From the NCBI GenBank assembly GCA_001972305.1, contig BDDD01001816.1, positions 124,001-188,000 on the forward strand: a stretch of DNA of 64,000 bases, given 5' to 3'. Below are positions 1 to 35,837 of the stretch, piece by piece. Under the pieces are notes generated by a model. The model did not search any database and was not told the origin of the DNA. It saw only the letters and a list, made by a program, of their open reading frames with translations. A program made the translations under genes and the position numbers. Within the stretch, counting starts at the first letter, position 1; each line of letters opens with the position of its first letter. This DNA is from Cephalotus follicularis. Taxonomy: Eukaryota; Streptophyta; Magnoliopsida; Oxalidales; Cephalotaceae.

Positions 1-1885
1 TCAGATATAGTAGCATTTAGAGCCTTTCAGTAAGTTTTCTAGATGAGGACCTTGTCCTCAGACTTTTAGCCCCCAGCCTAGAAAAAGCAGCAAGTAAGAA
101 TAATTGTTCAGATGAGAACACAGGTTCTCGGCAGGTTAACTGCACAGCTCGGCATAGGCCGAAGACCAGCTCAGCTCAGGCCACTTCAAGTTGGCAACTA
201 TATTATGTAACCAGCTCGGCATAGGCCGAAGACCAGCTTAGCTCCGGCCACTATAAGTTGGCAACTATATTATTTAATCAGCAGCAAAGCAAGCAGAGCA
301 GAGAAAAGCCAGTTCCCAGCTTAGATCTTCTCGTCAGGTTTTTAGCCGAGAAAGACCCCATCTCTTTATCAGATCTCTTTCTTTTAATCAGTTGTATTCT
401 TAAGTTTATTTCAGCTTTAATGAACATTCTAGAATCAGCTAAGCAGAGAAAGAAGTGAGTTTTCAAGTACTTTGAGTGTTTGTTTTTTGTATGACATGAC
501 ATATGTTTTGTTACAGTCTTTTCCCCAATTGGGATAGTTATTCATGCTCATGGTAAGATTTCTTCAGCACATTCCTTTTTATGGATGCATTAGAGGTTGT
601 TTTGTTCTCAGTCACTTAGTTAGTTGGACTAATCCCCTCACAGATTATTTTACAGACTAGCCAGTTGGAGGAGACCCTCAAGCTCAGCAGTAGATAGTGA
701 AACGAGGTAGTTTTTGAGCTCATCACCATGGAAGGTAAGCTCAGGCGTTTAGCATTGCATAGAATTGGGCATTCTTTTGGGTTTCTATATCCCCTTTTTG
801 TAGTAGAGTAGCCGAGAGCTTTTCTTTGTGTAAGGATATATTATTCTTTTGCCTGCCAGGGATGGCAATGTATTTTTATGCCAGGGAACAAACATGTATG
901 ATTTTATGCTTTGAAGAAACTTTATGGATGCTTTCAGTAGGTAGATTTGTTTTTCTTGTGATTTTATGGATATTTCATGTTTTGAGTTTTGTGTTCCCAG
1001 GTCTGGCCGGGGGGGCTAGAGAGTCCCTGGCTAGTATAGCGGAGATGAGCTTAGCGGGGGAGAGTAGTTTAAGTCTAAGGATGATACTTTAAGTTTTTAG
1101 AGTGTTACTCATGGAGGTAGGCTGTCCCCGGGTAAGGTTGGGCCTTGGAGTATGGCACCGAGAAGGAGTCCTCGGGTCGAAGCTAGGGGAGGCTTGTTGA
1201 GGAAGGCCAGGGATGAGTTATATGTTTTGGAGTAATAGTGTTTTAAGTTATGCTATGCATTTTGATGTTAGTAGTGTTGTTGGCTGGCCAGGGGAGAAAG
1301 GTAGCGGGGGACAAGGTGCGTCCCTGGGGCCCGTGCAGGCCTTAGTGTTTATGTTTTGACGTGAGGCGTGCGTGCCTTTGTCCTTGGGCGCTGGTGATAT
1401 TGCGCATTAGCCGAGGCCCTCTCCTCGGTATTTTGTGTGATGCGTCCCTGGTGTGATCCTCTAAGGTCTCTCCCCGGGAATGTTTGTTAAGTGAGCTCAT
1501 GAATTGCACGTGTGTGCCCTCCCTGGGCACGTTGTTGCGCGTTTATCCTTGGCCCTCTCCCCGGGCATGATTTTGTGTGATAACTGAAGTGATCTTGTGA
1601 GGAGCACGTGGGTGACCTCCTCGGGCATAAGTGATGCACGTTTTGGAGCTTTGGTTAAGTAGTGCTGGGGACACAAGCAGGAAAGGAGTTGGTTCCCCTG
1701 CCCCAGTTGCCCCGTTAGCTGCGCGCCCAGCCCAGCCTTTCTCCTCGGGCTTCTTGAGCGATGGGTTTCCCAGGGAGTCTTCAGATGGCTCCTCGGGCAG
1801 TTTTAGTTTGAGAGGGTTGTTGGCAAGGAGTGCCATCCCCGGCATGACACGTGTCACATAGTTAGAGCGGGAACGGGTCCTGACA
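1..1885 (+). repeat. LTR 1 of the TR-GAG array (3' part)
   Basis: Matches 4,500-6,454 and 9,011-10,965 along its whole length and ends in GGGTCCTGACA, the same end as the other two LTRs (the third reads TAACA). A primer site follows three bases later. The left part lies outside the window. The last ~250 bases are clearly more GC-rich than the rest and are open in several frames in all three LTRs; I read this as a property of the U5-like end, not a gene. Confidence 0.9.
145..278 (+). repeat. 67-bp minisatellite in LTR 1, two copies
   Basis: The unit begins CAGCTCGGCATAGGCCGAAG and repeats at 145 and 212. LTRs 2 and 3 carry three units at the same place, so the copy number differs between sister LTRs. 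The first bases contain a short inverted repeat (TCGG...CCGA). Confidence 0.9.
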
Positions 1886-1888
1886 ACG

Positions 1889-1900
1889 TGGTATCAGAGC
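1889..1900 (+). other. Primer binding site, tRNA-iMet type
   Basis: TGGTATCAGAGC lies three bases after the LTR end at 1,885. It is the usual plant LTR-element primer site complementary to the 3' end of initiator tRNA-Met, and it fixes the element as plus strand. Confidence 0.92.
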
Positions 1901-2026
1901 TTAAGTTTTTGTTTTTCCTTGTGCTTCCTATGTTTGTTAGTGGGGTATCTTTATGGGGTTGCATTCGTCCATTGCATCTAAGTTACGACGATATCGTGAT
2001 ACGTCTTCAGGTTGTTGTAGAAGACG

Positions 2027-3400
2027 ATGCCACCGCGGACTCATAGCACGGCTCGTGGCAGAGGTCGCGGTAGAGGAAGTGGAAGAGGAAGAGAGATTCC
2101 TTGCCGGACAGTGGAGCAAGAGGTTCCTATAGAAGCTCTAGAGGAGCAAGCGAATATGGAAGTAGAAGGACAGGGAGCTCGACAGGTACCAGAGGAGCCT
2201 ATCCCAGCAACACAATCAGCCGCACGTATGCCTCCGCCAGCACCTGCCAGTGGACCTACGGAGATGATGGAAGCAGCAATGATGTGGGCTCAGACTATGG
2301 GTTTAGTAAGACCTCAGCCCCTTCCTGTCGAAGGCATGCAACGGTTAGGTGCAACGTTGTTTGAGAGAATAGGAGACCCCATGGATGCAGAGTTATTGTT
2401 AAACCACATTGAAGAGATCTTCGCGTGGCTAGATATAGCAGAGGATTCACGGGTAAAGAATGCTTCCTTCTTTCTTGCAAGACGTGCTCGAAGATGGTGG
2501 TTAGCTCTTGTAGCCCGACATGAGAGCTTGGCAGGGATCTCGTAGGAAATGTTCAAGAAGGATTTTACGCAGTACTTCTTTCCACCTACGTTTGTTCAAG
2601 AGATGAGAAGAGAATTCCTTCATCTGCGGCAAGGGAATGGGTCTGTGTCCCAGTACTAGTACCTGTTCTTGGAGTTCTCACATTTTTTCTCCAGCCCTTG
2701 TAGCAGACCAAGAAGAGAGATGTCAGAAGTTCCTGGAAGGGACAAGATTCGAGATCAGACATATGGTATCCGTCACCCCGTGGTTAGTGTTCAACGATTT
2801 GGTGGAAGCTGCCAAGAGAGTAGAGTCGACCCTAGCAGACCAGAGTGTGCGTCAAGAGCAAGGTCGGAAGAGATCCTCATCTCACTCAGAGCTAGCAAAG
2901 AACCCCTCCAAAGTTTAGAAGTAGTGGGGGGAGCCTAGTCATCGGGCAACGTCAGAGGCGGAGCATCCCAGCAGACACAAACTGCCTCAGTTACTAGCAG
3001 CATACAGGGGGGTTCTTACCAGAGTGACAAGACCCCTCAGTGCCAAGTATGTGGTAAGTCCCATTCGGGGGAATGCAGGAAAGGAAGTTATGGATGCTAT
3101 AGATGTGGCGAGGCCGGGCACATGAAAAGAGATTGTCCTCAGCAATCTCTTAGCGAAGCGATGACTCCCATGACAACACCAGCAGCGAAGCAGACTCCTA
3201 GCAGTGGAACAGCCAGATAAAGTCAATAGGCAATAACACCGAGAATAAGTTTCTCAGTACCTCAGAATAGCACCGCCATAGCTACTGGTCGAAGACCTCC
3301 AAGCAGACCAGGGGCTACGGTGAGAGTTTACTCCCTTCTCAGACGGGCGGATATGATAGCACCAGACATGCCACCAGGTGAGATCTTGTGTTCTCTGTTT
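2027..3400 (+). pseudogene. Fossil gag, copy 1 of the TR-GAG array
   Basis: Starts at an ATG after the leader with an Arg/Gly-rich N-terminus (MPPRTHSTARGRGRG), as in many Gypsy gag proteins. The capsid-like core follows (LLNHIEEIFAWLDI, then a RRWW segment), then two CCHC zinc knuckles around 3,040-3,140 (CQVCGKSHSGEC and CYRCGEAGHMKRDC). The reading ends with RVYSLLRRAD-like sequence, which in complete Gypsy elements leads into the protease; here the 3' leader and polypurine tract follow instead. The protein would form the virus-like particle and bind RNA. The copy is broken, with several breaks, and is clearly homologous to 6,596-7,920. Confidence 0.85.
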
Positions 3401-3519
3401 CTCCTTTAGTAGGATAAGTTAAGTTATAGTATCTGTTAGTTAAGCATAGTTGCAGAGAAGCCAGTGATGATAGAATAGTTCTTCCTAAGGTTTGGCTTGA
3501 GGAATTTTGAGGACAAAAT

Positions 3520-3537
3520 TTCTTAAGGTGGGGAGCA
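3520..3537 (+). other. Polypurine tract before LTR 2
   Basis: AAGGTGGGGAGCA lies directly before the LTR start (TTTAATACCCCG here; TGTAAACCCCG in the sister copy). This is the plus-strand priming site expected at the 3' end of an internal region. Confidence 0.75.
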
Positions 3538-4244
3538 TTTAATACCCCGTTTCATTTTTTTTTTCAAGATTTAAGTGTTCTTTTTAAGTTGTTGATATGA
3601 GTTCGTTTTGGACTTTGAGCCTTTGTGTAATAATCAACAAGTGGGGAAAGTGTTAAGCCAAGGTTTAAGTGTAAATTGTGGAAGTTGGAGGATTTGAGTG
3701 CAAAGCTTATTGAGGAAGATTACAACTTCCAAGACAAATGATGGCTTAAGTTGGGTGTAGTGTGGAGATATCTTGAGATTTGGCCATCCTTTCTTCTAGC
3801 TTCTGCAGATTAGAGAGTTTTATAGAGAGAGAGAGACTCTAGTTTTCCTTTTTCGTCTTCTCCTCGTTCTTGGGCCTGGACCAGTAGCAGTTGAAGCTTT
3901 CCGAGCGCAGTAGTGGAAGAAGCAGACAAGGAAACGGAAAGAAGCAGTCAAGCCATAGGAAGAGAGTAGCTGAAGAGAAGTGGCATTAACGTCCAAGGAA
4001 GTACCAAGAACTGTGAGTGGGACATCCTTTTTTTTAAGCATTTTATTGTTCATCTTATATTCTTTGAGAAATCCTTCTCCTCAGCTTCAGTTTTGTTTAA
4101 GTGAGCTTAAATCGGAATTTGTTTTCCCTAATGTTTTATGTTAGCCATTCCTTCAGAGTGGAGTGTTTCCCATAGCAAGATGTTAAGAATCCTTTATATC
4201 ATTCATCCTCGGATGAGATGACATGTACGTGTTCACCCCCCTCC

Positions 4245-4480
4245 TCAGCGTATCAATTGTCTATGATGGGTTGTTGAGCAAGTCTGCCCCCAGGTTCCAT
4301 ACCTGGATCTCCTTACATTGTTGCTAGGACATTGTAAAGGGTTTGAGCAGAGCCGAGCACATATGTACAAGCTCCACCCTCCTCGGCCTATCATCACAGG
4401 ATGAGAAGTTGAGTTAGTCTGTCCCCGGGTTCCATACCTGGATATCCTTGCATTGTTGCTAGGACAATGTACAGGGATTG
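4245..4480 (+). repeat. Duplicated ~135-bp unit in LTR 2
   Basis: The phrase GGTTCCATACCTGGAT followed by a TTGTTGCTAGGACA segment occurs twice, about 135 bases apart. LTR 3 shows a related arrangement at about 8,790-8,990. Confidence 0.75.
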
Positions 4481-4644
4481 AGTACACCGAAGCTAAATTA
4501 TAAGATATAGCAGCATATAGAATCTTTCAGTATGTTTTCTAGAGGAGGACCTTGTCCTCCGACTTTTACTCCAAAGCCTAGAAAAAGCAGCAAGTAATAA
4601 TAACAGTTCAGATGAGAACAAAGGTTCTCGGTAGGATAACTGCA

Positions 4645-4846
4645 TAGCTCGGCATAGGACGAAGACCAGCTGAGCTCAGGCCAATATAAGTTAGCAACTA
4701 TATTATGTAACAAGCTCGGCGTAGGCTGAAGACCAGCTCAGCTCAGGCCACTATAAGTTGGCAACTGTATTATGTAACCAGCTCAGCATAGGCCGAAGAC
4801 CAGTTCAGCTCAGGCCACTATAAGTTGTCAACTATATTATGTAATC
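4645..4846 (+). repeat. 67-bp minisatellite in LTR 2, three copies
   Basis: Same unit as at 145-278, with three copies that differ slightly from one another. Confidence 0.88.
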
Positions 4847-6457
4847 AGCAGCAAAGCAAGCCCAGCAGAGAAAAGCCAGTTCCCAGCTCAGTTGTTCTCC
4901 TCGGGTTTTTAGCCAAGAAGGACCCCAGCTCTTTATCAGATCTCTTTGTTTTAATTAGTTGCATTCTTAAGTTTATTTCAGCTTTAATGAACATTCTAGA
5001 ATCAGCTAAGTAGAGAAAGACGTCAGTTTTTAATTACTTTGAGCGTTTGTTTATTGTATGCCATGACACATGTTTTGTTACAGTGTTTTCCCTAGTTGGG
5101 ATAGTTATTCATGCTCATGGTAAGATTTTTTCAGCACATTCCTTTTTATGGATGAATTAGTGGACATTTTGTTCTCAGTCACTTAGTCAGCTGGACTAAT
5201 CTCCTCACAGATTATTTTACAGATCAGCCAGCCAGAGGAGACCCTCCATCTCAGCAGTAAATAGCGAAACGAGGTAGTTTTTGAGCTCAGCACCATGGAA
5301 CATCAGCTCGGGCGTTTGGCATTGCATAGTATTGGGCATTCTTTTGGGTTTCTCTACCCCCTTTTTGTAGTAGAGTAGGCGAGAGCTTTTCTTTGTGTAA
5401 GGATATGTTATTCTTTTGCCTGTCAGGGATGGTAGTGTATGTTTATGCCAGGGAACAAACATGTAATGATTTTATGCTATCAAGAAACTTTATGGATGTT
5501 TTGAGTTGGTAGATTTGTTTTTCTTGTGATTTTATGGATATTTCATGTTTTGAGTTTTGTGTTCCCAGGTCTGGCCGGGGGCTAGAGAGTCCCTGGCTAG
5601 TATAGCGGAGATCAGCTTAGCAGGCGGGAGTAGTTTAAGGCTAAGGTTGATACTTTAAGTTTTTAGAGTGTTACTCGTGGAGGTAGGCCATCCCCGGGTA
5701 AGGTTGGGCCTTGAAGTATGGCGCCGAGAAGGAGTCCTCGGGTCGAAGCCAGGGGAGGCTTGTTGATGAAGGCCATGGATGAGTTATAAGTTTTGGAATA
5801 ATAGTGTTTTAAGTTATGCTATGCATTTTGATGTTAGTAGTGTTCTTGGCTGGCCAGGGGAGAAAGGTAACGGGTGACAAGGTGCGTCCCCGGGGCTCGT
5901 GCAAGCCTTAGTGTTTATGTTTTCACGTGAGGCGTGTGTGCGTTTGTCCTCGGGCGCTGGTGATATTGCGCATTAGCCCAGAACCTCTCCTCAAGATTTT
6001 GTGTGATGCATCCCCGGTGTGATCCTCTAAGGTCTCTCCTCAGGAATGTTTGTTAAGTGAGCTCATGAGTTGCACGTGTGTGCTCTCCCCGGACATGTTG
6101 TTGCGCATTTAGCCCTGGCCCTCTCCCCGGGCATGCTTTTGTGCGATAAGTTAAGTGATCTTGTGAGGAGCACGTGGGTGTCCTCCGTGGGCATAACTGA
6201 TGCGGCGCGTTTTGGAGCTTTGATTAAGTAGTGCTGGGGACACAAGCAGGAAAGGAGTTGGTTCCCCTGCCCCGGTTGCCCCGTTAGCTGCGCGCCCAGC
6301 CCAGGCTTTCTCCTCCCGCTTTTTGAGCGATGGGTTTCCTGGGGAGTCTTCAGATGGCTCCTCAGGCAGATTTAGTTTGAAAGGGTTATTGGTAAGGAGC
6401 GCCATCCCCGACAGGACATGTGTCCCATAGTTAGAGCGGAAACGGGTCCTGACAACG

Positions 6458-6469
6458 TGGTATTAGAGC
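6458..6469 (+). other. Primer binding site of the second unit
   Basis: TGGTATTAGAGC, three bases after the end of LTR 2; the same iMet-type site as at 1,889 with one difference. Confidence 0.85.
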
Positions 6470-6595
6470 TTAAGTTTGCATTTTTCCTTGTGCTTCCTAT
6501 GTTTGTAAGTGGGGTATCTTTATGGGGTTGCATTCATGCATTGCATCTAGGTTATGATGATATCGTGATATGTTAGCATGTTATTTTAGAAGACG

Positions 6596-7920
6596 ATGCC
6601 ACCGCGGACTTGTAGCACGGTTCGTGGCAGAGGAAGAGGCAGAGGAAGAGTGATTCCTTGCCAGACAGTGGAGCAAGAGGTTCCTATAGAACCGCCAGAG
6701 GAGCAAGCGAATGTGGGAGTAGAAGGACAGGGAACTGGACAGGTACAAGAGGAGCCTATCCCAGCAGCACAATCAGCCGAATGTATGCCTTCGCCATCAC
6801 CTTCTAGTGGACCTACGGAGATGATGCAAGCAGTAACGATGTGGGCTCATACTATGGGTTTAGTCAGACCTCAACCCCTTCCTGTCGAACGCATGCAACG
6901 GTTAGGTGCAACGTCATTTTCGGGAATAGGAGTCCCCATGGATGCAGAGTTGTTGTTAAACCACATTGAAGAGATCTTCATGTGGCTAGATATAGCAGAG
7001 GATTCACGGGTAAAGAATGCATCCTTCTTTCTTGCAAGAGGTGCTCGAAGATGGTAGGAAGCTCTTGTAGCCCAGCATGAGAGCTTGGCAGGGATCTCGT
7101 GGGAGAAGTTCAAGAAGGAGTTTAGGTAGTACTTCTTTCCACCTGCGTTTGTTCAAGAGAAGAGAAGAGAGTTCCTTCATCTACAGCAAGGAAATGGGTC
7201 TGTGTCCCAGTACAAGTACCGGTTCTTGGAGTTGTCACATTTTTCTCCAGCCCTTGTACCAGACCAAGAAGAGAGATGTCCGAAGTTCCTGGAAGGGCTA
7301 AGATTCGAGATCAGACATATGGTATCCGTCACCCCGTGGTTAGTGTTCGGAGATTTGGTTGAAGCTGCCAGGACAGTAGAGTCGAGCCTAGCAGACCAGA
7401 GGGTGCGTCATGAGCAAGGTCGGAAGAGATCCTCATCTCAGTCAGAGCAAGCAGAGAACCCCTCCAAAGTTCAGAAGCCGTGGGGAGCCTAGTCATCGGG
7501 CAATGTCAGAGGCGCAACATCCCAGCAGACACGAACTGCCCCAATTGCTAGTAATGTACAGGGGAGTTCTTACCAGAGTGACAAGACCCCTCAGGGCCAA
7601 GTATGTGGTAAGTCCCATTCGGGGGAATGCAGGAAAGGAAGTTATGGATACTATAGATGTGGCGAGGACAGGCACATGAAAAGTGATTGTGCTCAGCAAT
7701 CTCTTAGCGAAGCAATGACTCCCATGACAGCACCAGCAGCGAAGCAGACTCCTAGAAGTGGAACCGCCAGATCAAGTCAACAGGCGTCAACACCGAGAAC
7801 AAGTTTCTCAGCACCTCTGAACAGCACTGCCAGAGCTACTAGTGGCAGACCAGGGGTACAGTGAGAGTTTACTCCCTTCTCAGACAGGCGGATATGACAT
7901 CACCAGACATGCCACCAGGT
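6596..7920 (+). pseudogene. Fossil gag, copy 2 of the TR-GAG array
   Basis: Second copy of the gag at 2,027-3,400, with the same order: Arg/Gly-rich start (MPPRTCSTVRGRGRG), capsid-like core containing LLNHIEEIFMWLDI, a charged linker and the two zinc knuckles at about 7,600-7,690. The reading again gives way to leader and polypurine tract shortly after the RVYSLL-like segment, so the gag-only layout is common to both units and was probably already present in their ancestor. Broken, with several breaks. Confidence 0.83.
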
Positions 7921-8061
7921 GAGATCTTGCCTTCTACGTTTCTCCTTTAGTAGGATAAGTTAAGTTATTGTATATGTTAGTTGAGCATAGTTGCAGAGAA
8001 GCCCGAGATGATAGAATACTTCTTTCTAAGCTTTGGCTTGAGGAATTTTGAGGAAAAAATT

Positions 8062-8078
8062 TCTTATGGTGGGGAGGA
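8062..8078 (+). other. Polypurine tract before LTR 3
   Basis: TGGTGGGGAGGA immediately precedes the TGTAAACCCCG start of LTR 3. Confidence 0.75.
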
Positions 8079-10965
8079 TGTAAACCCCGTTTCTTTTTTT
8101 TTTTTTAAGATTTAATAGTCCTTTTTAAGTTGTTCATATGAGTTCCTTTTGGACTTTGGGCCTTTGTGTAATAATGGACAAGAGGAGAAAGTGTTAAGCC
8201 AAGGTTTAAGTGTAAATTGTGGAAGTTGGAGGATTTAAGTGCAAAGCTTCTTGAGGAAGATTACAACTTCCAAGACAAGTGATGGCTTATGTTGGGGGTA
8301 GTGTGGAGATATCTTGAGATTTGGCCATCCTTTCCTCTAGCTTATGCAGATTAGAGAGTTATATATATAGAGTGAGAGTCTAGTTTTCTTTTTTCGTCTT
8401 CTACTCATTCTGGCGCCTGGACCAGTAGGAGTTGAAGCTTTCCGAGCGCAGCAGTGGAAGAAGCAGACAAGGAACGGGAAAGAAATAGTCTAGCCATAGG
8501 AACAGAGTAGCAAAAGAGAAGTGGCGTTAGCATCCAAGGAAGTAGCGAGAACTGTGAGTGGGACATCCTTTCATTTAAGCATTTTATTGTTCATCTTATA
8601 TTCTTTGAGAAATCCTTCCCCTCAGCTTCAGTTTTGTCTAAGTGAGCTTATATGGGAATTTGTTTTCCCTAATGTTTTATGTTAGCCATTCCTTCAGAGT
8701 GGAGTGTTTCCCAGAGCAAGATGTTAAGAATCCTTTATATCATTCATCCTCAGATGAGATGACGTGTACGTGTTCACCCCTCTCCTCAGCGTACGTATTG
8801 TCTACGATGGGTTTTTGAACGAGTCTTCCTCCAGGTTCCATACCTAGATCTCCTTACATTGTGGCTAGGATAGTGTGCAGGGTTTTAGCGCATCCGAGAA
8901 CATATGTACAAGCTCCTCCCTCCTCATCCTGTCCCCGGGTTCCATACCAGGATCTCCTCGCATTGTTTCTATTACAATGTATAGGGATTGAGTACAACAG
9001 AGCTAAGTTATTAGATATAGTAGCATACAGAGCCTTTCAGTAAGTTTTCTAGAGGAGGACCTTTTCCTCGGACTTTTAGGCCAAAGCCCAGAAAAAGCAG
9101 CAAGAAAGAATAACAGTTCAGATGAGAACACAGGTTCTCAGCAGGTTAATTGCACAGCTCGGCATAGGCCGAAGACCAGCTCATCTTAGGCCACTATAAC
9201 TTCACAACTATATTATGTAACCAGCTCGGCATAGGCCGAAGAACAGCTCAGCTCAGGCCACTATAAGTTGGGAACTATATTATGTAACCAGATCGGCATA
9301 GGCCGAAGACCAGCTCAGCTCAGGCCACTATAAGTTCGAAACTATATTATGTAATCAGCAGGAAAACAAGCACATCAGAGAAAAGCAAGTTCCCAGCTTA
9401 GTTGTTCTCCTCGGGTTTTTAGCCGAGAAGGACCCCAGCTCTTTATCAGATCTCTTTGTTTTAATTAGTTGTATTCTTAAGTTTATTTCAGCTTTAATTA
9501 ACATTCTAGAATCAGCTAAGCAGAGAAAGTAGTAAGTTTTCAATTACTTTGAGCGTTTCTTTATTGTATGCCATGACATATGTTTTGTTACAGTCTTTTC
9601 CCTAGTTGGGATAGTTATTCATGCTCATGGTAAGATTTCTTCAGCGCATTCCTTTTTATGGATGCATTAGAGGATGTTTTGTTCTCAGTCACTTAGTCAG
9701 TTGGACTAATCCCCTCACAGATTATTTTACAGATCAGCCAGTTGGAGGAGACCCTCCATCTCAGCAGTATATAACGAAACTAGGTAGTTTTTTAGCTCAG
9801 CACAATGGAACGTCAGCTCGGGCGTTTAGCGTTGCATAGCATTGGGCATTCTGTTGGGTTTCTCTACTCCCTTTTTGTATTGGAGTAGCCGAGACCTTTT
9901 CTTTGTGTAAGGATATGTTATTCTTTTACCGGCCAGGAAAGGCAGTGTATGTTTATGTCAGGGAACAAACATGTAATGATTTTATGCTTTCAAGAAACTT
10001 TATGGATGTTTTGAGTTGGTAGATTTGTTTATCGTGTGATTTTAAGGATATTTCGTGTTTTGAGTTTTGTGTTCCCAGGTCTGGCCGGGGGGCTAGAGAG
10101 TCCCTATCTAGTATAGCAGAGATGAGCTTAGCGGGGGAGAGTAGTTTAACGCTAAGGTGGATGCTTTAAGTTTTTAGAGTGTTACTCATGGAGGTAGGTT
10201 GTCCCAGGGTAAGGTTGGGACTTGGAGTATGGTGCCGAGAAGGAGTCCTCGGGTCGAAGCCAGGGGAGGCTTGTTGATGAAGGCCAGGGATGAGTTATAA
10301 GTTTTGGATTAATAGTGTTTTAAGTTCTTCTGTGCGTTTTGATGTTAGTAGTGTTCTTGGTTAGCCAGGGGAGAAAGGTAGCGAGGGACAAGGTGCGTCC
10401 CCGCGGCCTGTGCAGGCCTTAGTGTTTATGTTTTCACGTGAGGCGTGCGTGCGTCTTTCCTCAAGCGCTGGTGATATTGCGCATTAGCCCATGGCCTCTC
10501 CTCGGGCTTTTGTGTGATTCGTCCTTGGTGTGATCCTCTAAGGTCTCTCCCCGGGCATGTTTGTTAAGTGAGTTCGTGAGTTGCACGTGAGTGCTCTCAC
10601 CGGGCATGTTGTTGCACGTTTAGCCCTGGCCCTCTCCCCGGGCATGCTTTTGCACGATAAGTTAAGTGATCTTTTGAGGAGCACGTGGGTGTCCTCCTCG
10701 GGCATAAGTGATGCGGCGCGTTTTGGAGCTTTGGTTAAGTAGTGCTGGAGACACAAGGAGGAAAGGAGTTGGATCCCCTGCCCCGGTTGCCCCGTTAGCT
10801 TCGCGCCCATCCCGGGCTTTCTCCTCGGGCTTTTTGAGCGATGGGTTTCCTTGGGAGTCTTCAGATGGCTCCTCGGGTAGTTTTAGTTTGAGAGGGTTGT
10901 TGGCAAGGATAGCCATCCCCGGCGGGACATGTGTCCCTTAGTTAGAGCGGGAACGGGTCCTAACA
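8079..10965 (+). repeat. LTR 3 of the TR-GAG array (full length, 2.9 kb)
   Basis: Runs from TGTAAACCCCG to GGGTCCTAACA. It carries the 67-bp minisatellite (9,155-9,356), a GGACTAATCCCCTC block near 9,701 and the GC-rich end seen in LTRs 1 and 2. No primer site follows it, so it is the outer end of the array; the next bases are AAATC. The matching target duplication, if any, lies left of the window. Confidence 0.9.
9155..9356 (+). repeat. 67-bp minisatellite in LTR 3, three copies
   Basis: Same unit as at 145-278 and 4,645-4,846. Confidence 0.88.
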
Positions 10966-11027
10966 AAATCTCTATATATTAAAACGTTATGCTACAAGTT
11001 TTTAATCAAAAAATTGTTTCTTGCTGC

Positions 11028-26340: not shown

Positions 26341-26860
26341 AAGAGTTTTTCTATTTACCCAATCAACTATCTATATTTTTAGAAATATATCTATCAAGTT
26401 TATTTGTTGATTCAATGAGATTGAATATGCATGATGGTATGGCTATGAACTTGAGCTGGTTTGTCTTATTTAATTCTAGTGTTGAATGTATGGTTTTTAT
26501 TTTTCATATTTTCTGGTTGTAATAACTTTTGAGACTTGCATGTCTCACTTCTCTCTCTTAATTTGTATCTACAATTCTTCTTCACCTCATTGTAACTCCC
26601 CTTGATTTATTTCAAGGTTTATGTAGTTTATAGTTGGTTTATGTAATTGAAGAGCGAGCGTCGCAGTGGAAGCAAGTTGGAGGAGAGTGATGATATTACA
26701 AGACTCGTGCATGTATGGGAGCGAATGCATGATTGTAATAACATACCAAGGAATGAGATCAGCAGCTTGTTTGAGAATGAAACAAGTTGCAGTGGTAAAA
26801 CTCCATAACCTGCCATTAGAGTATAGTATGTATGTGATGCATGTCTAAATTCTGCTCTTG

Positions 26861-26903
26861 AGGTTCCAACGGCCTCCCCTTAGAGGTTCCAACGGCCTCT
26901 CCA
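26861..26903 (+). repeat. Doubled short repeat with GAGG...CCTC symmetry
   Basis: GAGGTTCCAACGGCCTC occurs twice, 23 bases apart. Confidence 0.85.
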
Positions 26904-26945
26904 TATTATGCCATTTTCCTGTAATTTGATTAATAAAGGTTTGGC

Positions 26946-26947
<2 letters not shown>

Positions 26948-27021
<74 letters not shown>
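26948..27021 (+). repeat. (AAT)n microsatellite
   Basis: About 24 uninterrupted AAT units. It makes a meaningless poly-Ile reading on the minus strand. Confidence 0.97.
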
Positions 27022-27024
<3 letters not shown>

Positions 27025-27114
27025 ATTTATATAAATATTCCTCAATTATACCATGATATCAAGTTATAGCGAAACGATCACAAGAGAGTGTTTGGTCGTT
27101 GCCTTCTGCCATTA

Positions 27115-27465
27115 CAACTTATATAGATGCTTCTGGACATTGTAAGTGTTTTGGCCCCCGTCAAGGCTTGCCTTTTCTTGGGACATCTATATGAGTTGAA
27201 CATGAGATGTACATACGAATGAATTGTGAAAGTGAATGTTTGACCCCATCAAGATTCACGTTCATTGATTCATTGTGTGTTGGATGGTAGGTTAAACTTG
27301 ACTAGAATACATATGACATTTTGGCCCCCGTCTAGGTCATGTGTAGACTAGAGGCAAAAGCGATGATCGGGAATCATGCTATTGTATTGTTTGCAAGAGT
27401 TTGCCTAACTACAAGATTCAGTATAGCGTTTTGGCCCCAATAAAGGTTATACTGAATATGTTGTA
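27115..27465 (+). other. Array of four stem-loops with a common loop in the C leader
   Basis: Four imperfect hairpins follow each other. HP1: CAACTTATATAGATG (27,115) pairs with CATCTATATGAGTTG (27,184) with one G-U pair. HP2: AATGAAT and GTGAAT (27,218, 27,232) pair with ATTCAC and ATTCATT (27,254, 27,268). HP3: CTAGAATACATATGAC (27,302) pairs with GTCATGTGTAGACTAG (27,336). HP4: TACAA and ATTCAGTATA (27,410, 27,416) pair with TATACTGAAT and TTGTA (27,448, 27,461). The stems are unrelated in sequence, yet the loops agree: TTTTGGCCCCCGTCAAGG, TTGACCCCATCAAG, TTTTGGCCCCCGTCTAGG, TTTTGGCCCCAATAAAGG. This is what selection on an RNA fold with a recognised loop would leave. A role in packaging or dimerisation (GGCC is self-complementary) is inference. 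Confidence 0.8.
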
Positions 27466-27678
27466 GGACAATGATCCCTACTCGAAAATAAGATCCATGA
27501 GACTTGGATTGTTGTTTCTCATCTCCCATAATATTTGAGGGTTATGGGATTCGCGTAAAACAGTGGGCGCCTGAGAGGAAAAACACCTAAAATATTAAAG
27601 ACCAAATCTTTATGGTTATAAACATTTAAATTGAATTTATCTGAATATTGACTTTATTTTATATCTGTAGAAATCACA

Positions 27679-28640
27679 ATGACAAACCCCTTTACTGTAA
27701 TTATTAAGAAGAATCAGTTGACAGGTCCAAATTATGTGGACTACCTCTGGAATGTCAAAACAGTTTTCAATTCCGAGGACATGGATTATGTCTTAGAGGC
27801 CCCTATGCCAGCACTGCCTGCTGAAGATGCCTCAACCAACGATCATGCCATTTATAAGAAATGGGTGGCTGATGAAAAGCAAGTCAGAAGCTACCTAATG
27901 GAATTGATGAGCAATGCCCTACAAGTCCAGCATGAATCATTGCTAGACTCTAGGGAAATTCTCCTACATCTTCGCCAGTTATATGGAGAGACTAGTAGGA
28001 ATGCTCGGTTCCAGCTCACTGCTGAGCTGTATGGCACAAACATGGCTGAAGGATGTTCAGTTAATGATCATGTACTGAAGATGATCAATGTCATAGAACG
28101 TCTTGCTGCTCTTGATATAATTCAGGACGCTGAATTAAGCACATATCTGATCCTTCAGTCGCTTCCACCTTCCTTCTCTGGTTTCATCACCAATTTTAAC
28201 ATGAATATGATAGTAGATACTTTTCCTGATCTTCTAAACGTGCTGAGGGAAGACAAAGTAAATATGAATAAGGGCAAGGTGCCAGTCATGATGGTAGGAT
28301 CATCCTGTAGGCCCAAGAGGAAAGGCAAGTCCAACCTTGAGAAGGGAAAGACTAAAATTTGGGCAATACCACCACGACCGGCATCTTTCAAACCAGCAAA
28401 ATCCAGACCATATAATCAGACAAACCAGCAAGCTGTTGTTGTGCCAGACACTATCACAAGAGTTGCACCTGTTGAGGAGTCTGCCTTAGAAGCTCCTGCA
28501 AAGGGACCGTTCTTCCACTGTGGGAAGCCAGAACATTGGAAAAGGAACAATGTGACATTCCTTCAATCAATTGGCAAACGTATGCCCTATTTGTCTTATA
28601 TAGAGGTGGATATCAATATTTCTGATTCATCTTCCTAGAT
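27679..28640 (+). pseudogene. Fossil gag of element C (Copia type)
   Basis: Opens with MTNPFTVIIKKNQLTGPNYV, the LxGxNY-type start of plant Copia gag, followed by a UBN2-like capsid region (LRQLYGETSRNARFQL, MAEGCSVNDHVLKMI, LILQSLPPSFSGFITNFNMN) and a basic linker. One zinc-knuckle-like segment (FHCGKPEHWKRN) lies near residue 275. It would form the particle and bind element RNA. The reading is open for about 320 residues, close to the family length; the element as a whole is broken. Confidence 0.88.
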
Positions 28641-29275: not shown

Positions 29276-29689
29276 TGTCACACCCCGTTTACAAAAAACG
29301 CAGCATTAAAGCGGTAAAGGCAATTAACATATAATACAGCTCATGCAAAACCGTGAAATTTAAAACTTTTCCAAGCATAGCAGTTGAGGAAGCATAAAAG
29401 AACATAAGCTGTCAACACGTAACGTGCGTCCCATACCGCACGCTACCCAAATACAGGTCATAAAAGTTAATCGCCCATAAAACGGAGCGTGAACAATACA
29501 ATATAAAATTTCTTCAGAAACAGAACCATAATAATGGAACATTATTCATCAATACATAGATTCAATTATTACAAAGATCCATAAACGTTTCTCAAAAGCA
29601 GAAACAACATAAACTCCAATTTGCTCCACGGGGCTCAACGGTAGCAAACCACTGCATCAACCTGAAATCAATCTAAAACTGTAGGGGGG

Positions 29690-29714
29690 TTAGCCTTTGT
29701 CCTCACTCGGCTAA
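29690..29714 (-). other. Conserved stem-loop in LTR D
   Basis: TTAGCC and GGCTAA enclose a 13-base loop, GAGTGAGGACAAA in transcript sense. The same loop occurs in LTRs X and Y at the same distance (about 400-415 bases) from the LTR end. Confidence 0.8.
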
Positions 29715-30269
29715 GTCATAACAGTAAATCGGGATCAACATAATGCATGTCATGATATGAATGCATAAATGATGTAGTGCAGTGGAGGCCCAGTTTATAC
29801 ATATATGAAAATACGTATATCAGTACAGTAAAATATCGGTGTTACATATATAAGAAATATATGTATACAGTAACAGTACAGTAGTAAGTAATGTCCGTAA
29901 AGGACCAGTAAACAGTACAGTACAGTATGTCCACATAGGACCACAACAGGCAGTTTGTCCACATAGGACCACAATAACAGTCAGGATGTCCACACAGGAC
30001 CACAACAGGCAGTTTTATCAACACAAGCAGTAAATATGTTCCCCAAAAGGAACCAGACAAACCAGTCGTCATGACCGTCGCCACCTCCTGGCCCCAACGT
30101 CACGCACTCTTACTCCATCCCCGTTTGCGAACGGTTTTGGGGCAAGTCCTCCGTAAGTTGTTTAGCATGGCGACTAAACCAACAACAGGTTACTAGCACA
30201 GCGGCTAAGTAATCAACAGGTTATTAGCACGATGGCCAATAATCAACAAGCACAAGCATTTCACAGTAC

Positions 30270-32085
30270 AAGTCAAGCAATTACATATAATTACTTGATC
30301 AAATATATTTGTTTAAAATATACTTTTCCGTTCACAAGTTGTAATAAGTTTTAAACTTAAAACAATGCATTTCTCTGTCTTTGGAAATACTTCCTCAGTC
30401 ATTTTGAAAATATATAAATTCTTAAGTCGACAAATATACATTTTCGCACAAAACATTTGGTTTCATAATCAAACCCTTAAAACAGTTCTCTGTCATTGGA
30501 AATACTTCATTTCGAAAATATATAAATTCAGGTTTTGACAAATATACATTTTCGTACCCAAATGATCATAACAATCATGCAAGCTTTTCAAAATGGTTTT
30601 AACACTTTTAGGAAAGCAACCATAATGCAAGTCACAGTAACAATGCAAACATATGCTCAGAATGCATCTAGGTTCGTTTCTAGAGTCGTTTCGGGTCTAA
30701 CGGTTCTCATTCGTGCGAAATTCTGCTGTCCAGGAGGAAAGACGTTGATGTCATTTCCAAAGGCGTCGATGTCTTTTCCAACATGCGTCGATGTCCGAGT
30801 CTCAGGGTCAACGCATTCCTCTGCAGAAGGCATCGATGTCCATTTCTTACGCGTCGATGCTCACGGTCTGGAACCTTTAAAACGACAGCGTATTTTAGAT
30901 GGCGTCGACGCATTAAGGTAAGAACCTTAGGCGTCGACGCATTAAGGTAAGAACCTTAGGCGTCGACGTCTTTGACGTCAAAATCTAGGTAGGTAGCCTA
31001 GGGCGTCGATGACTTTCCAAAGACGTCGATCCCTCTCAGTCAGTAACAAGGAAAGACTAAAAAGACGTCGATGTTTATCTAAAAGACGTCGATGTCTTTT
31101 CCAACAGTAGTCGTCTTCTACCTCACCACTCAACAAGCAGTAGCCTTAACAACCCATAATCATGCATAATAACAGGAAATCAAGGCAAGGAACTAACACG
31201 CAGATACTCAGAACATATCTAGCATCTCATGACATCAATCCAGTAACAAAATCAGCACAAGAATTAAGCATTTTATACATTCAAAACCATAAACCATGCA
31301 TGAATGTCAAACTCGAAATTACAGTATGGCTTTCCCCTACCTTTGATTCCCAATCAGGAATTGCAGTATCACTAGCACAATCGAACCGCAGGTTCAATTG
31401 CTGAACCTTTCCGATAACCGTGGAACCGAAGCCGGTTCTCGCCAATTGATAAATTCCTCGATGCCAAAACCAATTGCCACTCGCACACTGCACATACAAC
31501 ACATTTCTATTATGTTCGACACACAAAACATTTCCGCCGCCGAAACGCCGGTCGGATTTTGACCGACACAACCAGGCGACAAAACATACATCAACGGGTT
31601 CCACATTGAACGGTGAACACAGAACCGGTCATGACTCGTCGGGAATCGGCGCCGAACGCCGTGCCACAGCCGGCAGTGAGTTGTGACTCACTGAGTGAAC
31701 TCGTCGGACCTCCACAGGTCCGATCACCACCCAAAAACGCCACATATCCACTAGTTATACACATCCATGGCCGTGACTCGCCAAGACTCGACGCCAAACG
31801 CCGTGTCTCAGGCGACAGTGAGTCGACTCGCTGAGTCGACTCATTCAACTTATTCCGGCAATTTTCGGCCGAATCACGGCGCACCTAGTCCTCTACACCA
31901 AAACCCAGGCCACCCGCGACGCAAACGGCGTCGGGAAACGCCAGGATCTTGCGCGAACAGTGGTGGCCAGGAGAAGAGAAAAGAAGAAAAAGAGAAGAAG
32001 GGGGAGGAGGTTATCGTCGGTTGGAGGCCCTGGGTTGACCGGCGTGCTCTCCCGGTCCGGTAGCTGCCTCCGGCGTCCTCTCCCC
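30270..32085 (-). repeat. Tandem duplication inside D, copy 1
   Basis: Starts AAGTCAAGCAATTACATATA; the same start recurs at 32,086. The copies agree almost base for base over long stretches, with a few small insertions, for example one extra palindrome unit near 30,930 in this copy. Confidence 0.95.
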
Positions 32086-33893
32086 AAGTCAAGCAATTAC
32101 ATATAATTACTTGATCAAATATATTTGTTTAAAATATACTTTTCCGTTCACAAGTTGTAATAAGTTTTAAACTTAAAACAATGCATTTCTCTGTCTTTGG
32201 AAATACTTCCCCAGTCATTTTGAAAATATATAAATTCTTAAGTCGACAAATATACATTTTCGCACAAAACATTTGGTTTCATAATCAAATCCTTAAAACA
32301 GTTCTCTGTCATTGGAAATACTTCATTTCGAAAATATATAAATTCAGGTTTTGACAAATATACATTTTCGTACCCAAATGATCATAACAATCATTCAAGC
32401 TTTTCAAAATGGTTTTAACACTTTTAGGAAAGCAACCATAATGCAAGTCACAGTAACAATGCAAACATATGCTCAGAATGCATCTAGGTTCGTTTCTAGA
32501 GTCGTTTCGGGTCTAACGGTTCTCATTCGTGCGAAATTCTGCTGTCCAGGAGGAAAGACTTCGATGTCATTTCCAAAGGCATCGATGTCTTTTCCAACAT
32601 GCGTCGATGTCCGAGTCTCAGGGTCAACGCATTCCTCTGCAGAAGGCGTCGATGTTCATTTCTTACGCGTCGATGCTCACGGTCTGGAACCTTTAAAATG
32701 ACAGCGTATTTTAGATGGCGTCGACGCATTAAGGTAAGAACCTTAGGCCTCGACGTCTTCGACGCAAAATCCAGGTAGGTAGCCTAGGGCGTCGATGTCT
32801 TTCCAAAGACGTCGATCCCTCTCAGTCAGTAACAAGGAAAGACTAAAAAGACGTCGATGTTTATCTAAAAGACATCGATGTCTTTTCCAACAGTAGTCGT
32901 CTTCTACCTCATGACTCAACAAGCAGTAGCCTTAACAACCCATAATCATGCATAATAACAGGAAATCAAGGCAAGGAACTAACACGCAGATACTCAGAAC
33001 ATATCTAGCATCTCATGACATCAATCCAGTAACAAAATCAGTACAAGAATTATGCATTTTATACATTCAAAACCATAAACCATGCATGAATGTCAAACTC
33101 GAAATTACAGTATGGCTATCCCCTACCTTTGATTCCCAATCAGGAATCGCAGTATCACTAGCACAATCGAACCGCAGGTTCAAATGCCAAACCTTTTCGA
33201 TAACCGTGGAACCGAAGCCGGTTCTCGCCAATTGATCAATTCCTCGATGCCAAAACCAATTGCCACTTGCACACTGCTCATAAAACACATTTCCGTTATG
33301 TTCGACACACAAAACATTTCCGCGGCCGAAACGCCGGTCGGATTTTGACCGACACAACCAGGCGACAAAACATACATCAACGGGTTCCACATTGAACGGT
33401 GAACACAGAACCGGTCATGACTCGCCGGGAATCGGTGCCGAACGTCGTGCCACGGCCGGTAGTGAGTCATGACTCACTGAGTCAAGTCGTCGGACCTCCA
33501 CAGGTCCGATCACCACCCAAAAACGCCACATATCCACTCGTTATACACATCCAGGGCCGTGACTCACCAAGACTCGGTGCCAAACGCCGTGTCTCAGGCG
33601 ACAGTGAGAGTCGACTCGCTGAGTCAACTCATTCAACTTATTCCGGCCGTTTCCGGCCGAATCACGGCGCACCAGTTGTCGAAATGGGTATAGCTAGTCC
33701 TCTACACCAAAACCCAGGCCACCCGCGACGCAAACGGCGTCGGGAAACGCCAGGATCTTGCGCGAACAGTGGTGGCCAGGAGAAGAGAAAAGAAGAAAAA
33801 GAGAAGAAGGGGGAGGAGGTTACCGTCGGTTGGAGGCCCTGGGTTGACCGGCGTGCTCTTGCGGTCCGGTAGCTGCCTCCGGCGTCCTTTCCC
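32086..33893 (-). repeat. Tandem duplication inside D, copy 2
   Basis: Second copy of 30,270-32,085, with about 20 extra bases near 33,673. Unique LTR sequence continues from 33,894 to the LTR end. Confidence 0.95.
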
Positions 33894-34308
33894 GGTCTCT
33901 CTGCCGATCTCTCTCCCAATCTCTCTCGTCCCCTCTCCCAGATGCAGGCGCTTTGTGCGCCTGCGTTGTTTCATGTACGGGCGCGTGATGCGCCCGTGTG
34001 TGTGCCTCTCCCATTTATTCTTGCTTCCTCCTTAGCATTTTCTGGTAAAATACTAAGGTGCGGGTCCCGATTTTTCCGCAAATCGTGACATAAATTATCA
34101 TAACGACCACCAAAATAATCGCAATAATATTGCGAACATTTGGGCTTTATTGTCGCGCATTAAAAATAGACTTTATTAGCCGTCTTAGCTAACACGATTA
34201 CGGCTTAAATGCGTAATGCCTTTTTATTACTCCGGGCTCTATCGATTTTATCACGACTGTACACGTACCAATTTCAAAATAATTATTTATGAAATTCGGG
34301 GCGTTACA

Positions 34309-35837
34309 TGGATATTCCTACTTCATAATCTTTACGGATGATCATTCCCATTTTGGTTATTTGTACCTGATGCGGCACAAATCTGAAGCCTTTGTAAAGT
34401 CTAAAGAATTCAGACATGAAGTAGAGAAAAAGACTGGTAAAAGTCTGAAGATTCTTCGATGAAATCGAGGTGGTGAATATCTCTCCACCGAGTTTTTAAC
34501 TTATCTCAAACATAATGTGATTATCTCTCAGTGGACCCCTCCGGGAATACCACAGCATAATGGTTTGTTTGAAAGGAGGAATCACACTTTGCTAGACATG
34601 GTGCGTAGCATGATGAGTGATGCTGGACTTCCACTGTCTTTCTGGGGTTATGCTTTAGAGACTACTGTTCTCTGATTGAACAGGACTCCAACGAAATTTG
34701 CTCCCAAGACCCCATATGAGATATGGAATGGGAAGAAACCCAATCTTAGTTACCTAAGGATATGGGGCTGCCCTACATATGTTAAGCAGGCATCAGCAGA
34801 TAAATTGAAATATAGGTCTATAAAATGCAAACTTGTGGGATATCCTAAAGAAACACGACTATATTACTTCTATTATCCACCTGACAACAAAGTGTTTGTA
34901 GCCAGGCATGCTACTTTTCTTGAGAAAGACTTCCTGTTGGAAGATAGTAGTGGGAGTATGATAGAATTAGATGAACGATCTAAAGAACCACAAGTTGAGG
35001 GCCTATCTAACCATGTTCAAATTGATGTTCCTGAAATGTTGGCTACTACAGATACACAACCTCTGCGTAGAACTACCCGATTACCTAGGGAACCTGAGAG
35101 ATACTATGGTAGCTTTCTCATTGAAGGTACCTAAGAGGTAAATTTTATGAATGATGATCAAGTAAGCTACAAAGAAGCCATATGCGATATGGACTCAGAG
35201 AAATGGCTTAAAGCCATGAATTTTGAAATGGAATCCATGTACTCCAATCAAGTTTGTAATCTAGTGGATGCACCTGAAGGGGTTAAACCCTTAGGTTGCA
35301 AATGGATTTTCAAAAGGAAGCTTGGAGACGATGGAAAGGTGAAGACCTTCAAAGCTAGGCTGGTAGCCAAAGGTTAGAATCAAAGAGAAACTTTCTCTCT
35401 CGTAGCCATGCTTAAATCCATTCGGATTTTACTTGCTATAACTGCATATTTTGACGAAGAGATATAGCAAATGGATGTGAAAACTACTTTTCTTGATGGA
35501 AACATTGATGAAGACATTTATATGACTCAACCTGAGGGCTTCATATCCACCAGTAAGGACCAGAAAGTGTGCAAGCTTAAGAAGTCCATTTATGGGCTAA
35601 AGCAAGCTTTGAGAAGTCGGAACATCCGATTCGATGAGACAATCAAAGAGTTTGATTTCATTGAGAATCGAGATGAACCATGTGTGTATAAAAAGCTTAG
35701 TGGGAGCTCCATGACTTTCCTAGTCTTGTACGTTGATGACATACTCCTTATAGCAAATGATATGACCATGTTGTCAAACGTAAAGACTTGGTTATCTACA
35801 GTTTTCTCCATGAAATACTTGGGAGAAGCTTCCTATA
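34309..35837 (+). pseudogene. Fossil integrase and reverse transcriptase of element C
   Basis: Continues the Copia pol after D: integrase core (FTDDHSHFGYLYLM, WTPPGIPQHNG, ERRNHTLLDMVRSMM), the integrase C-terminal part (TPYEIWNGKKPNLSYLRIWG), then reverse transcriptase (EKWLKAMNFEMESMYSNQV, CKWIFKRKLG, MDVKTTFLDGNIDEDIYMTQ, KSIYGLKQA, LVLYVDDILLIAND). The reading is cut by the 5' LTR of element E inside the RT. Broken, with a handful of breaks. Confidence 0.9.

What the first reader, a model, noticed from the sequence alone, without database searches (positions are those of the whole stretch)
27115..27465. Four successive hairpins with unrelated stems but the same loop in a Copia leader
Seen: four stems of quite different sequence (for example CAACTTATATAGATG with CATCTATATGAGTTG, and ATTCAGTATA with TATACTGAAT), spaced about 80-110 bases apart, each enclosing TTTTGGCCCCCGTCAAGG or a close variant. 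If this were only a decayed tandem repeat, the stems should resemble one another; instead the pairing and the loop are kept and the stem sequence is free. That is the mark of an RNA structure read through its loop. The GGCC in most loops is self-complementary, which would suit kissing-loop dimerisation or packaging (inference). I do not know of a described element with such an array.
Basis: partly seen in the sequence, partly recalled or inferred. Interest (0 to 1): 0.8.

Follow-up and report, generated by a model that had tools for sequence, protein, structure and literature searches.

The report
Four-hairpin RNA array in Copia leaders
A plant jumping gene carries, just ahead of its first gene, four RNA hairpins whose stems differ but whose tips match, and its relatives keep the same layout with other shared tips, which suggests a repeated RNA address label that marks the element's own transcript.

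Summary
The element is one copy of a large Copia family in a 1.58-Gb plant genome. In 78 fetched leaders the four hairpins keep 95.3% standard pairs (30-43% with slid partners). Pair variants shared by 4 or more copies mostly keep pairing (29 of 45); private ones mostly break it (25 of 118 keep). The hairpins are more stable as sense than as antisense RNA. Relatives (gag 34-68% identical by piece) keep four hairpins at nearly the same spacing but carry other tips: TTGTTGAGCACACTCAAGG (B) or a GCCAAAGC tip (D). Within an element tips are largely shared and stems unrelated: the natural arm pairing is best in 12 of 12 elements with four placed hairpins. The 'loop' is itself a capped helix: 5' bulge, about 5 bp, C/A-only apical loop, so GGCC kissing is not supported. 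A D-type family whose gag-pol is only relics has multiplied and keeps the array, which argues for a cis role other than translating its own gag. Best reading: a repeated recognition element for packaging genomic RNA, reader unknown. Structure near certain; packaging likely, untested. No described equivalent found.

The parts
27054..27063 (+). probable primer-binding site (TGATATCAAG) just after the 5' LTR end; the array lies between it and gag
   Evidence: Read by eye; likeness to the tRNA-Met site TGGTATCAGAG is recalled; no 3' LTR found in the window to fix the LTR end
27115..27198 (+). hairpin 1, cap TTTTGGCCCCCGTCAAGG at 27149-27166
   Evidence: z -5.26, 0 of 200 shuffles; 93.8% standard pairs in 78 leaders, slid 30.6-47.3%
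27216..27277 (+). hairpin 2, decayed cap TTTGACCCCATCAAGA at 27239-27254; full cap usual in other copies
   Evidence: z -3.07, 1 of 200 shuffles
27302..27351 (+). hairpin 3, cap TTTTGGCCCCCGTCTAGG at 27319-27336
   Evidence: z -3.13, 1 of 200 shuffles; 92.5% standard pairs across A and B, slid 16.8-55.5%, but both-sided changes no more frequent than in one slid control
27411..27461 (+). hairpin 4, cap TTTTGGCCCCAATAAAGG at 27429-27446
   Evidence: z -4.63, 0 of 200 shuffles; 92.2% standard pairs across A and B (slid 30.3-43.0%), 50 both-sided cells (slid 6-29), both-sided change in 8 of 11 pairs (slid 5-8)
27524..27549 (+). further hairpin without the shared cap (TCCCATAAT/GTTATGGGA); similar sequence in B and C leaders
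   Evidence: 7 of 200 shuffles as good; seen by eye in relatives; not tested for covariation
27679..28638 (+). Copia gag ORF (319 aa) downstream of the array; zinc knuckle decayed here, full CX2CX4HX4C in copies such as L040, L046 and L214
   Evidence: PF14223 E=2.4e-15

Best explanation
The leader of this Copia lineage carries an array of (usually) four sense-strand RNA hairpins between the primer-binding site and gag. Each hairpin is a stalk (lower stem, any sequence that pairs) that presents the same small cap: a 2-3-nt bulge on the 5' side, a helix of about 5 bp with a lineage-specific sequence, and a 4-5-nt loop of C and A. Shown here by comparison: the structure, its maintenance on sense RNA, and its persistence across lineages while the caps change and stay largely alike within an element. 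The most likely reader is the element's own Gag (its zinc-knuckle part) and the most likely purpose is selecting full-length RNA for packaging into virus-like particles; a family with broken gag-pol that kept the array would then be packaged by partners.
For: Structure. Maintenance: 95.3% standard cells over 76 stem pairs in 78 leaders against 30.1-43.4% for slid partners; variants private to one copy keep pairing in 25 of 118, variants shared by 4 or more copies in 29 of 45, Fisher p 5e-7. Sense RNA: one-sided changes from Watson-Crick pairs give G-U:A-C 13:18 when private and 19:5 when shared, p 0.007; sense more stable than antisense in 57 of 57 (unit 3, cap A), 82 of 85 (unit 4, cap A) and 27 of 27 (D), control 84 of 148. 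Free stems, own partners: within elements the natural arm pairing is the single best of 24 in 7 of 7 A, 4 of 4 B/U2 and 1 of 1 all-B elements; between lineages own arms beat swapped arms by 3-6 kcal/mol on average in each of the four positions. Between-lineage compensation in unit 4, e.g. T-A to C-G and G-C to C-G or T-A. Same layout in lineage D (spacing 91/84/124), whose gag is 34-39% identical to the window's in two loci. Cis role beyond own translation: L202, L203, L206, L210 keep D hairpins although a relic gag-pol follows; their tail recurs at 93-95% in the 39 non-self matches scored. Gag of related copies has a CCHC knuckle.
Against: No binding, packaging or expression data. Within family A, swapping partner columns among pairs of the same type reproduces the kept/broken counts, and both-sided changes are only slightly in excess (14 cells against a mean of 9.0, 72 of 1000 permutations as high), so within-family covariation alone is weak; in the A-B comparison unit 3 shows no both-sided excess over one slid control. 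Cap columns are only mildly more conserved among shared variants than linkers (shared/private 0.34 against 0.42), and stems are not (0.47). The mutation spectrum explains part of the shared/private contrast: 'would-keep' changes rise from 48 of 272 to 30 of 113 in linkers too. The between-lineage swap used only three stem clusters per position. The 3' part of the broken family was not read, and its first-look count (2265) is not a copy number.
Confidence: 0.55

Rival explanations
1. Translation control: the array helps ribosomes reach gag by internal entry or shunting across a leader full of upstream AUGs.
For: Upstream AUGs are not depleted: 16 in the window leader against 18.5 in shuffles, and near or above shuffles in 6 other leaders (11-21 against 13.0-21.3), so plain scanning to gag looks unlikely if this leader is on the gag mRNA.
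Against: A family with relic gag-pol keeps the hairpins. BARE, a plant Copia, packages an RNA pool distinct from the translated one (PMC3735527, passages including the abstract), so AUGs in packaged RNA need no rescue.
Confidence: 0.17
2. A host RNA-binding factor reads the caps, for instance for nuclear export or stability of unspliced element RNA, as repeated export elements do in some retroviruses (recalled).
For: Repeated caps on free stems fit any multivalent reader; an intron-like stretch follows the array in B and C leaders (by eye), so unspliced RNA may need help to leave the nucleus.
Against: Caps differ sharply between lineages living in one genome (A, B, D), which fits a lineage-specific reader better than one host protein. 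Splicing was not tested.
Confidence: 0.14
4. By-product: a decayed tandem repeat, or palindromes made by template switching, without function.
For: Extra hairpin copies do arise (5 caps in L183, 6 in L169; a leader piece a second time downstream in L195).
Against: Shared/private contrast, G-U asymmetry, sense bias, swap tests, and the same four positions across deep divergence.
Confidence: 0.03

Closest known systems
Retroviral and retrotransposon packaging signals (psi): stem-loop clusters of HIV-1 and MLV (recalled); Ty1 region +230-580; BARE packaging and dimerisation signals
   Same: Position between primer-binding site and gag, several hairpins in a row, sense RNA, retained by a non-autonomous relative (BARE2 for BARE1, PMC3735527 passages).
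   Different: Here four hairpins with mutually unrelated stems carry nearly the same cap, and the caps change between lineages while the layout stays. For Ty1 psi is not precisely defined and Gag's preferred site in vitro involves a pseudoknot (PMC8396678 passages).
Sirevirus LTR palindrome arrays (CACCGGAC...GTCCGGTG)
   Same: Plant Copia elements with arrays of hairpin-forming sequence (PMC2829016 and PMC10760457 passages).
   Different: Those are copies of one palindrome in the LTR, so the stem is what repeats; here the stem is free and the tip repeats, downstream of the LTR.
Conserved Hairpin Site of fungal GalEa Copia elements
   Same: A Copia hairpin right after the 5' LTR conserved across families (PMC5445492 passages).
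   Different: Single hairpin with conserved stem and the less conserved loop, in elements without a primer-binding site; here the reverse and in four copies.
Dispersed coat-protein hairpins of RNA phages (MS2 operator and pseudo-sites)
   Same: Multivalent recognition by repeated sites is proposed there (PMC8472981, one passage); a bulged stem under a short loop is the recalled geometry.
   Different: Different virus class; here the cap helix itself has conserved sequence and the sites sit in one leader.

Membership tests
Ty1/copia LTR retrotransposon | copia-type gag and RVT_2 reverse transcriptase downstream | tested here: met
   PF14223 E=2.4e-15; PF07727 E=8.3e-52 in the interrupted downstream part
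Conserved structural RNA element | pairs kept beyond chance in relatives with changes on both sides | tested here: met
   (unit 4); within family A alone and in unit 3 the both-sided excess is weak or absent
Retroelement packaging signal | lies in the leader between primer-binding site and gag | tested here: met
   primer-binding site assigned by eye
Retroelement packaging signal | required for and sufficient to direct RNA into particles; bound by Gag | not testable with these tools
   indirect only: array kept in a family with relic gag-pol
Kissing-loop dimer initiation site | self-complementary apical loop | tested here: not met
   typical apical loops CCCC, CACA, CCACA, CAAA in predicted folds; exception: decayed hairpin 4 of the window copy leaves GGCC open
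Sirevirus palindrome array | repeated palindrome with CGG-CCG core in the LTR | tested here: not met
   array lies after the presumed LTR end and the stems are unrelated
Known Rfam family | match at the gathering score | tested here: not met
   one sub-threshold match in the window leader and one among 5 relatives
Plant miRNA precursor | conserved stem arm giving a defined small RNA | tested here: inconclusive
   arms are the variable part, which speaks against it; no small RNA data

The most novel reading that the evidence does not exclude
A modular self/non-self label: each lineage has its own cap, displayed on four stems, that its own Gag reads; caps and reader drift together so that related Copia families in one genome sort their RNAs, and non-autonomous families persist by wearing the cap of a host lineage.
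Probability: 0.3. Interest if true: 0.88.

Novelty: new variant of a known kind. Interest (0 to 1): 0.77.

Why it matters
How plant LTR retrotransposons pick their own RNA for packaging is poorly known (PMC3735527 says fairly little is known of the packaged RNA outside BARE; PMC8396678 says Ty1's signal is not precisely defined). A compact array with exchangeable caps, present in many copies and in three cap lineages of one genome, makes that question testable: caps can be exchanged between lineages in binding assays, and broken families show what must be kept in cis.

Tried and rejected
Other collections: the gag query found no relative in viral contigs or genome contigs; the cap pattern matched 38 stretches of viral contigs, of which I viewed 45 bases on each side of each match: one contig has three identical copies, none looks like this array. 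Folding z-scores along the window do not single out the leader. Twelve other Copia leaders, picked from the 150 best PF14223 hits, have no A, B or U2 cap within 4 substitutions (0 of 12; D caps were not sought there); a general search for repeated tips flagged L148, whose repeats lie upstream of its primer-binding site, by eye in its LTR. Of 40 loci that I chose from the first 100 listed of 1373 gag-pattern hits (L149-L188), 31 hold at least one A, B or U2 cap, one (L161) is D, and 8 none; three of these (L153, L172, L187) keep the gag-side end of the leader, by BLAST for L153 and by eye for the others. The 12 B loci and 10 further D loci were chosen from the listed hits. Seven gag stretches were fetched; L211 gave no gag match. 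The paper searches listed no description of such an array; only listings were seen, except for the papers whose passages are cited. The first unit assignment for the swap test mixed positions and was replaced. Rows dropped before counts: 5 of 98 loci with partial leaders (93 leaders, several of them views of one element, 78 distinct), stem clusters with one member; in the D swap test, loci with fewer than three hairpins, all of L205 and one stray match in L201; in the D sense test, L205, L161 and that stray match.

Full report
What is there. The window is plant DNA, a stretch of one contig of a 1.58-Gb assembly. A Copia element runs on the + strand: LTR-like sequence up to about 27053, a leader, and a gag ORF at 27679-28638 (PF14223). 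Its pol is split by inserts and carries stops; RVT_2 is recognised in the later part, and no 3' LTR was found in the window. In the leader, four hairpins at 27115-27198, 27216-27277, 27302-27351 and 27411-27461 each fold better than almost all shuffles (0, 1, 1 and 0 of 200 as good), and the leader as a whole has z -5.5. The caps start at 27149, 27239, 27319 and 27429. By 150-nt z-scores the pieces within the array rank 29th to 251st of 852, so they are not exceptional within the window.

The family. The loop pattern TTTTGGCCCCNNTNWAGG occurs 1417+1477 times in the genome against 1+4 for the reversed pattern. A search with the leader gave 2482 first-look candidates, of which 40 were scored, all at 92% or more. 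I read 98 loci (L039-L136), some of them views of one element; 93 hold most of the leader, 78 of these are distinct, with pairwise identity 0.82-0.97. In the alignment the usual state of the second cap is complete too (ending in A instead of G), so the family state is four near-identical caps.

Selection on pairing. Over 76 stem pairs, 95.3% of cells are standard pairs; with partners slid by 1-3 bases, 30.1-43.4%. Because inserted copies decay freely, variants private to one copy approximate neutral change and variants shared by several copies reflect change in active elements. Private pair variants keep pairing in 25 of 118; variants shared by 4 or more copies in 29 of 45 (p 5e-7). Controls temper this: in linkers the spectrum of shared changes also shifts towards pair-keeping kinds (30 of 113 against 48 of 272; stem columns 20 of 43 against 13 of 101), and permuting partners among pairs of the same type leaves the counts unchanged, so this test shows respect for the partner base, not for one particular partner. 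Both-sided changes in family A are only slightly in excess (14 cells against 9.0, 72 of 1000). G-U against A-C changes are 13:18 when private and 19:5 when shared (p 0.007); a G-U pair of the sense RNA is an A-C mismatch in the antisense. Folding agrees: sense is more stable than antisense in 33 of 36 (unit 1, cap A), 14 of 14 (unit 2, cap A), 57 of 57 (unit 3, cap A), 82 of 85 (unit 4, cap A) and 27 of 27 (D), against 84 of 148 control pieces. With the cap removed the bias stays in unit 1 (35 of 35), is weaker in units 3 and 4 (37 of 48, 51 of 72), and is gone in the U2 set (4 of 13).

Relatives with other caps. A gag peptide pattern (669+704 hits) led to leaders whose BLAST matches to the window leader are 66-74% identical. 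They hold hairpins in the same places, but units 1, 3 and 4 carry TTGTTGAGCACACTCAAGG or close variants, with TTTGGACCACATCCAAGGG-like caps in unit 2; in L191 all four units carry the first. That cap has 415+397 exact hits against none for the control. A third lineage, D, found through L161, has caps around GCCAAAGC (pattern 246+242 against 0+1) on long hairpins, with spacing 91/84/124 (L202) and 91/84/125 (L204) against 90/80/110 in the window and 89/82/110 in L191. By aligned piece, gag identity to the window's is 47-68% in three B or C type loci (L212, L213, L217) and 34-39% in two D type loci (L215, L216); L211 gave no gag match.

Free stems, kept partners. Folding every 5' arm with every 3' arm of the same element, the natural arrangement is the single best of 24 in 7 of 7 A, 4 of 4 B/U2 and 1 of 1 all-B elements, in 37 of 40 elements with three placed hairpins, and in 5 of 6 D elements with three or four. 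Across lineages, medoids of the three stem clusters with two or more members pair better with their own arm in all four positions (mean -18.4 against -12.5, -20.4 against -15.6, -17.7 against -14.8, -16.3 against -10.2 kcal/mol; natural arrangement best of 6 in units 1, 2 and 4, not in unit 3). Base by base in unit 4 (109 distinct sequences) 92.2% of cells pair, 30.3-43.0% when slid, with 50 both-sided cells against 6-29 and both-sided change in 8 of 11 pairs against 5-8; pairs 6 and 7 are mainly T-A and G-C in A, and mainly C-G and C-G or T-A in B. Unit 3 has 92.5% paired (slid 16.8-55.5%) and 11 both-sided cells, no more than one of its slid controls.

Geometry of the cap. In the predicted folds of intact caps a 2-nt bulge (3 in U2) on the 5' side separates the stalk from a helix: UUUGGC/GUCAAG with loop CCCC (A), UUGAG/CUCAA with CACA (B), UUGGA/UCCAA with CCACA (U2), UCA-GC/GC-UGA with CAAA (D). 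A, B and U2 share UUG...CAAG around two variable pairs. None of these apical loops holds G or U, so none can pair with itself. Decayed caps differ: in hairpin 4 of the window copy GGCC falls in a 10-nt loop.

A broken family that keeps the array. L202, L203, L206 and L210 have D-type leaders (four hairpins matched in three of them, three in L203) followed by the same sequence; the other three are 89-93% identical to L202 over about 880-900 bases. A search with that tail gave 40 scored matches, the 39 others at 93-95%, out of 2265 first-look candidates. In the end of L202 and the next 2 kb (L218) no Pfam domain is found with stops masked; plus-strand stop-free runs in L218 reach 76 codons at most; pieces of gag, integrase and RT match relics at 39-49%. 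So the copies appear to have multiplied with broken coding sequence, and the hairpins remain. Such a family needs proteins from elsewhere and does not need to translate its own gag, which points to a cis-acting role such as packaging. The far 3' part was not read.

Mechanism. I take the array for a multivalent recognition element: stalks of any sequence hold up like caps, one reader binds them. Gag is the likeliest reader because the element lives by it, it carries a CCHC knuckle in related copies, and caps differ by lineage. This step is inferred. Upstream AUGs are not depleted (16 against 18.5 in the window leader), which leaves internal initiation possible.

Compared with what is known. Sirevirus LTR arrays repeat a palindrome (PMC2829016, PMC10760457 passages); GalEa elements have one conserved hairpin (PMC5445492 passages); Ty1 psi is not precisely defined (PMC8396678 passages); BARE2 keeps packaging and dimerisation signals without Gag (PMC3735527 passages). 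Rfam has no match at a gathering score in the window leader and five relatives. Nine paper searches listed nothing closer; most subscription papers are not held. I call it a new variant of a known kind, leader recognition RNA, with an arrangement I could not find described.

Noticed in passing
L195 about 867-1078; perhaps also L194 and L197: A 212-base piece of leader with caps 1 and 2 is present a second time, 85% like the first, by eye inside the gag reading region. L194 and L197 also have a second cap about 590 and 890 bases downstream of another.
   Followed up: partly
L169, L183: Leaders with 6 and 5 caps: array number varies by duplication of pieces.
   Followed up: no
L150, L157, L163, L167 and others, between array and gag; window 27560-27678: Intron-like stretch read by eye: AG|GTTTCC or AG|GTATCA, TTTACTAAT, T-rich tract, TTTATATCTGTAG|A just before the gag ATG, largely kept in B and C leaders; splicing untested.
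   Followed up: no
window 26860-26905: LTR end region holds two tandem copies of GAGGTTCCAACGGCCTC, itself a short hairpin; also present in several B and C leaders.
   Followed up: no
window 26946-27021: A perfect (TAA)25 tract sits between the AATAAAGG signal and the presumed LTR end of this copy.
   Followed up: no
window about 29300-34310 and from about 35842: The Copia is interrupted at least twice (limits by eye); the second insert has repeated CAGTCGACTG palindromes near its 5' end and a Gypsy-like gag-pol frame after about 38160. Similar AGTCGACTG palindromes occur upstream of gag in the other Copia L148.
   Followed up: no
window 1-10966: Two full and one partial tandem copies of a roughly 4.5-kb unit, about 90% alike, each with a 67-base tandem repeat.
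   Followed up: no
window 27059-27065 with 27292-27298: The best fold of the leader closes hairpins 1 and 2 into one domain by a long-range helix next to the primer-binding site (limits approximate); not tested in relatives.
   Followed up: no
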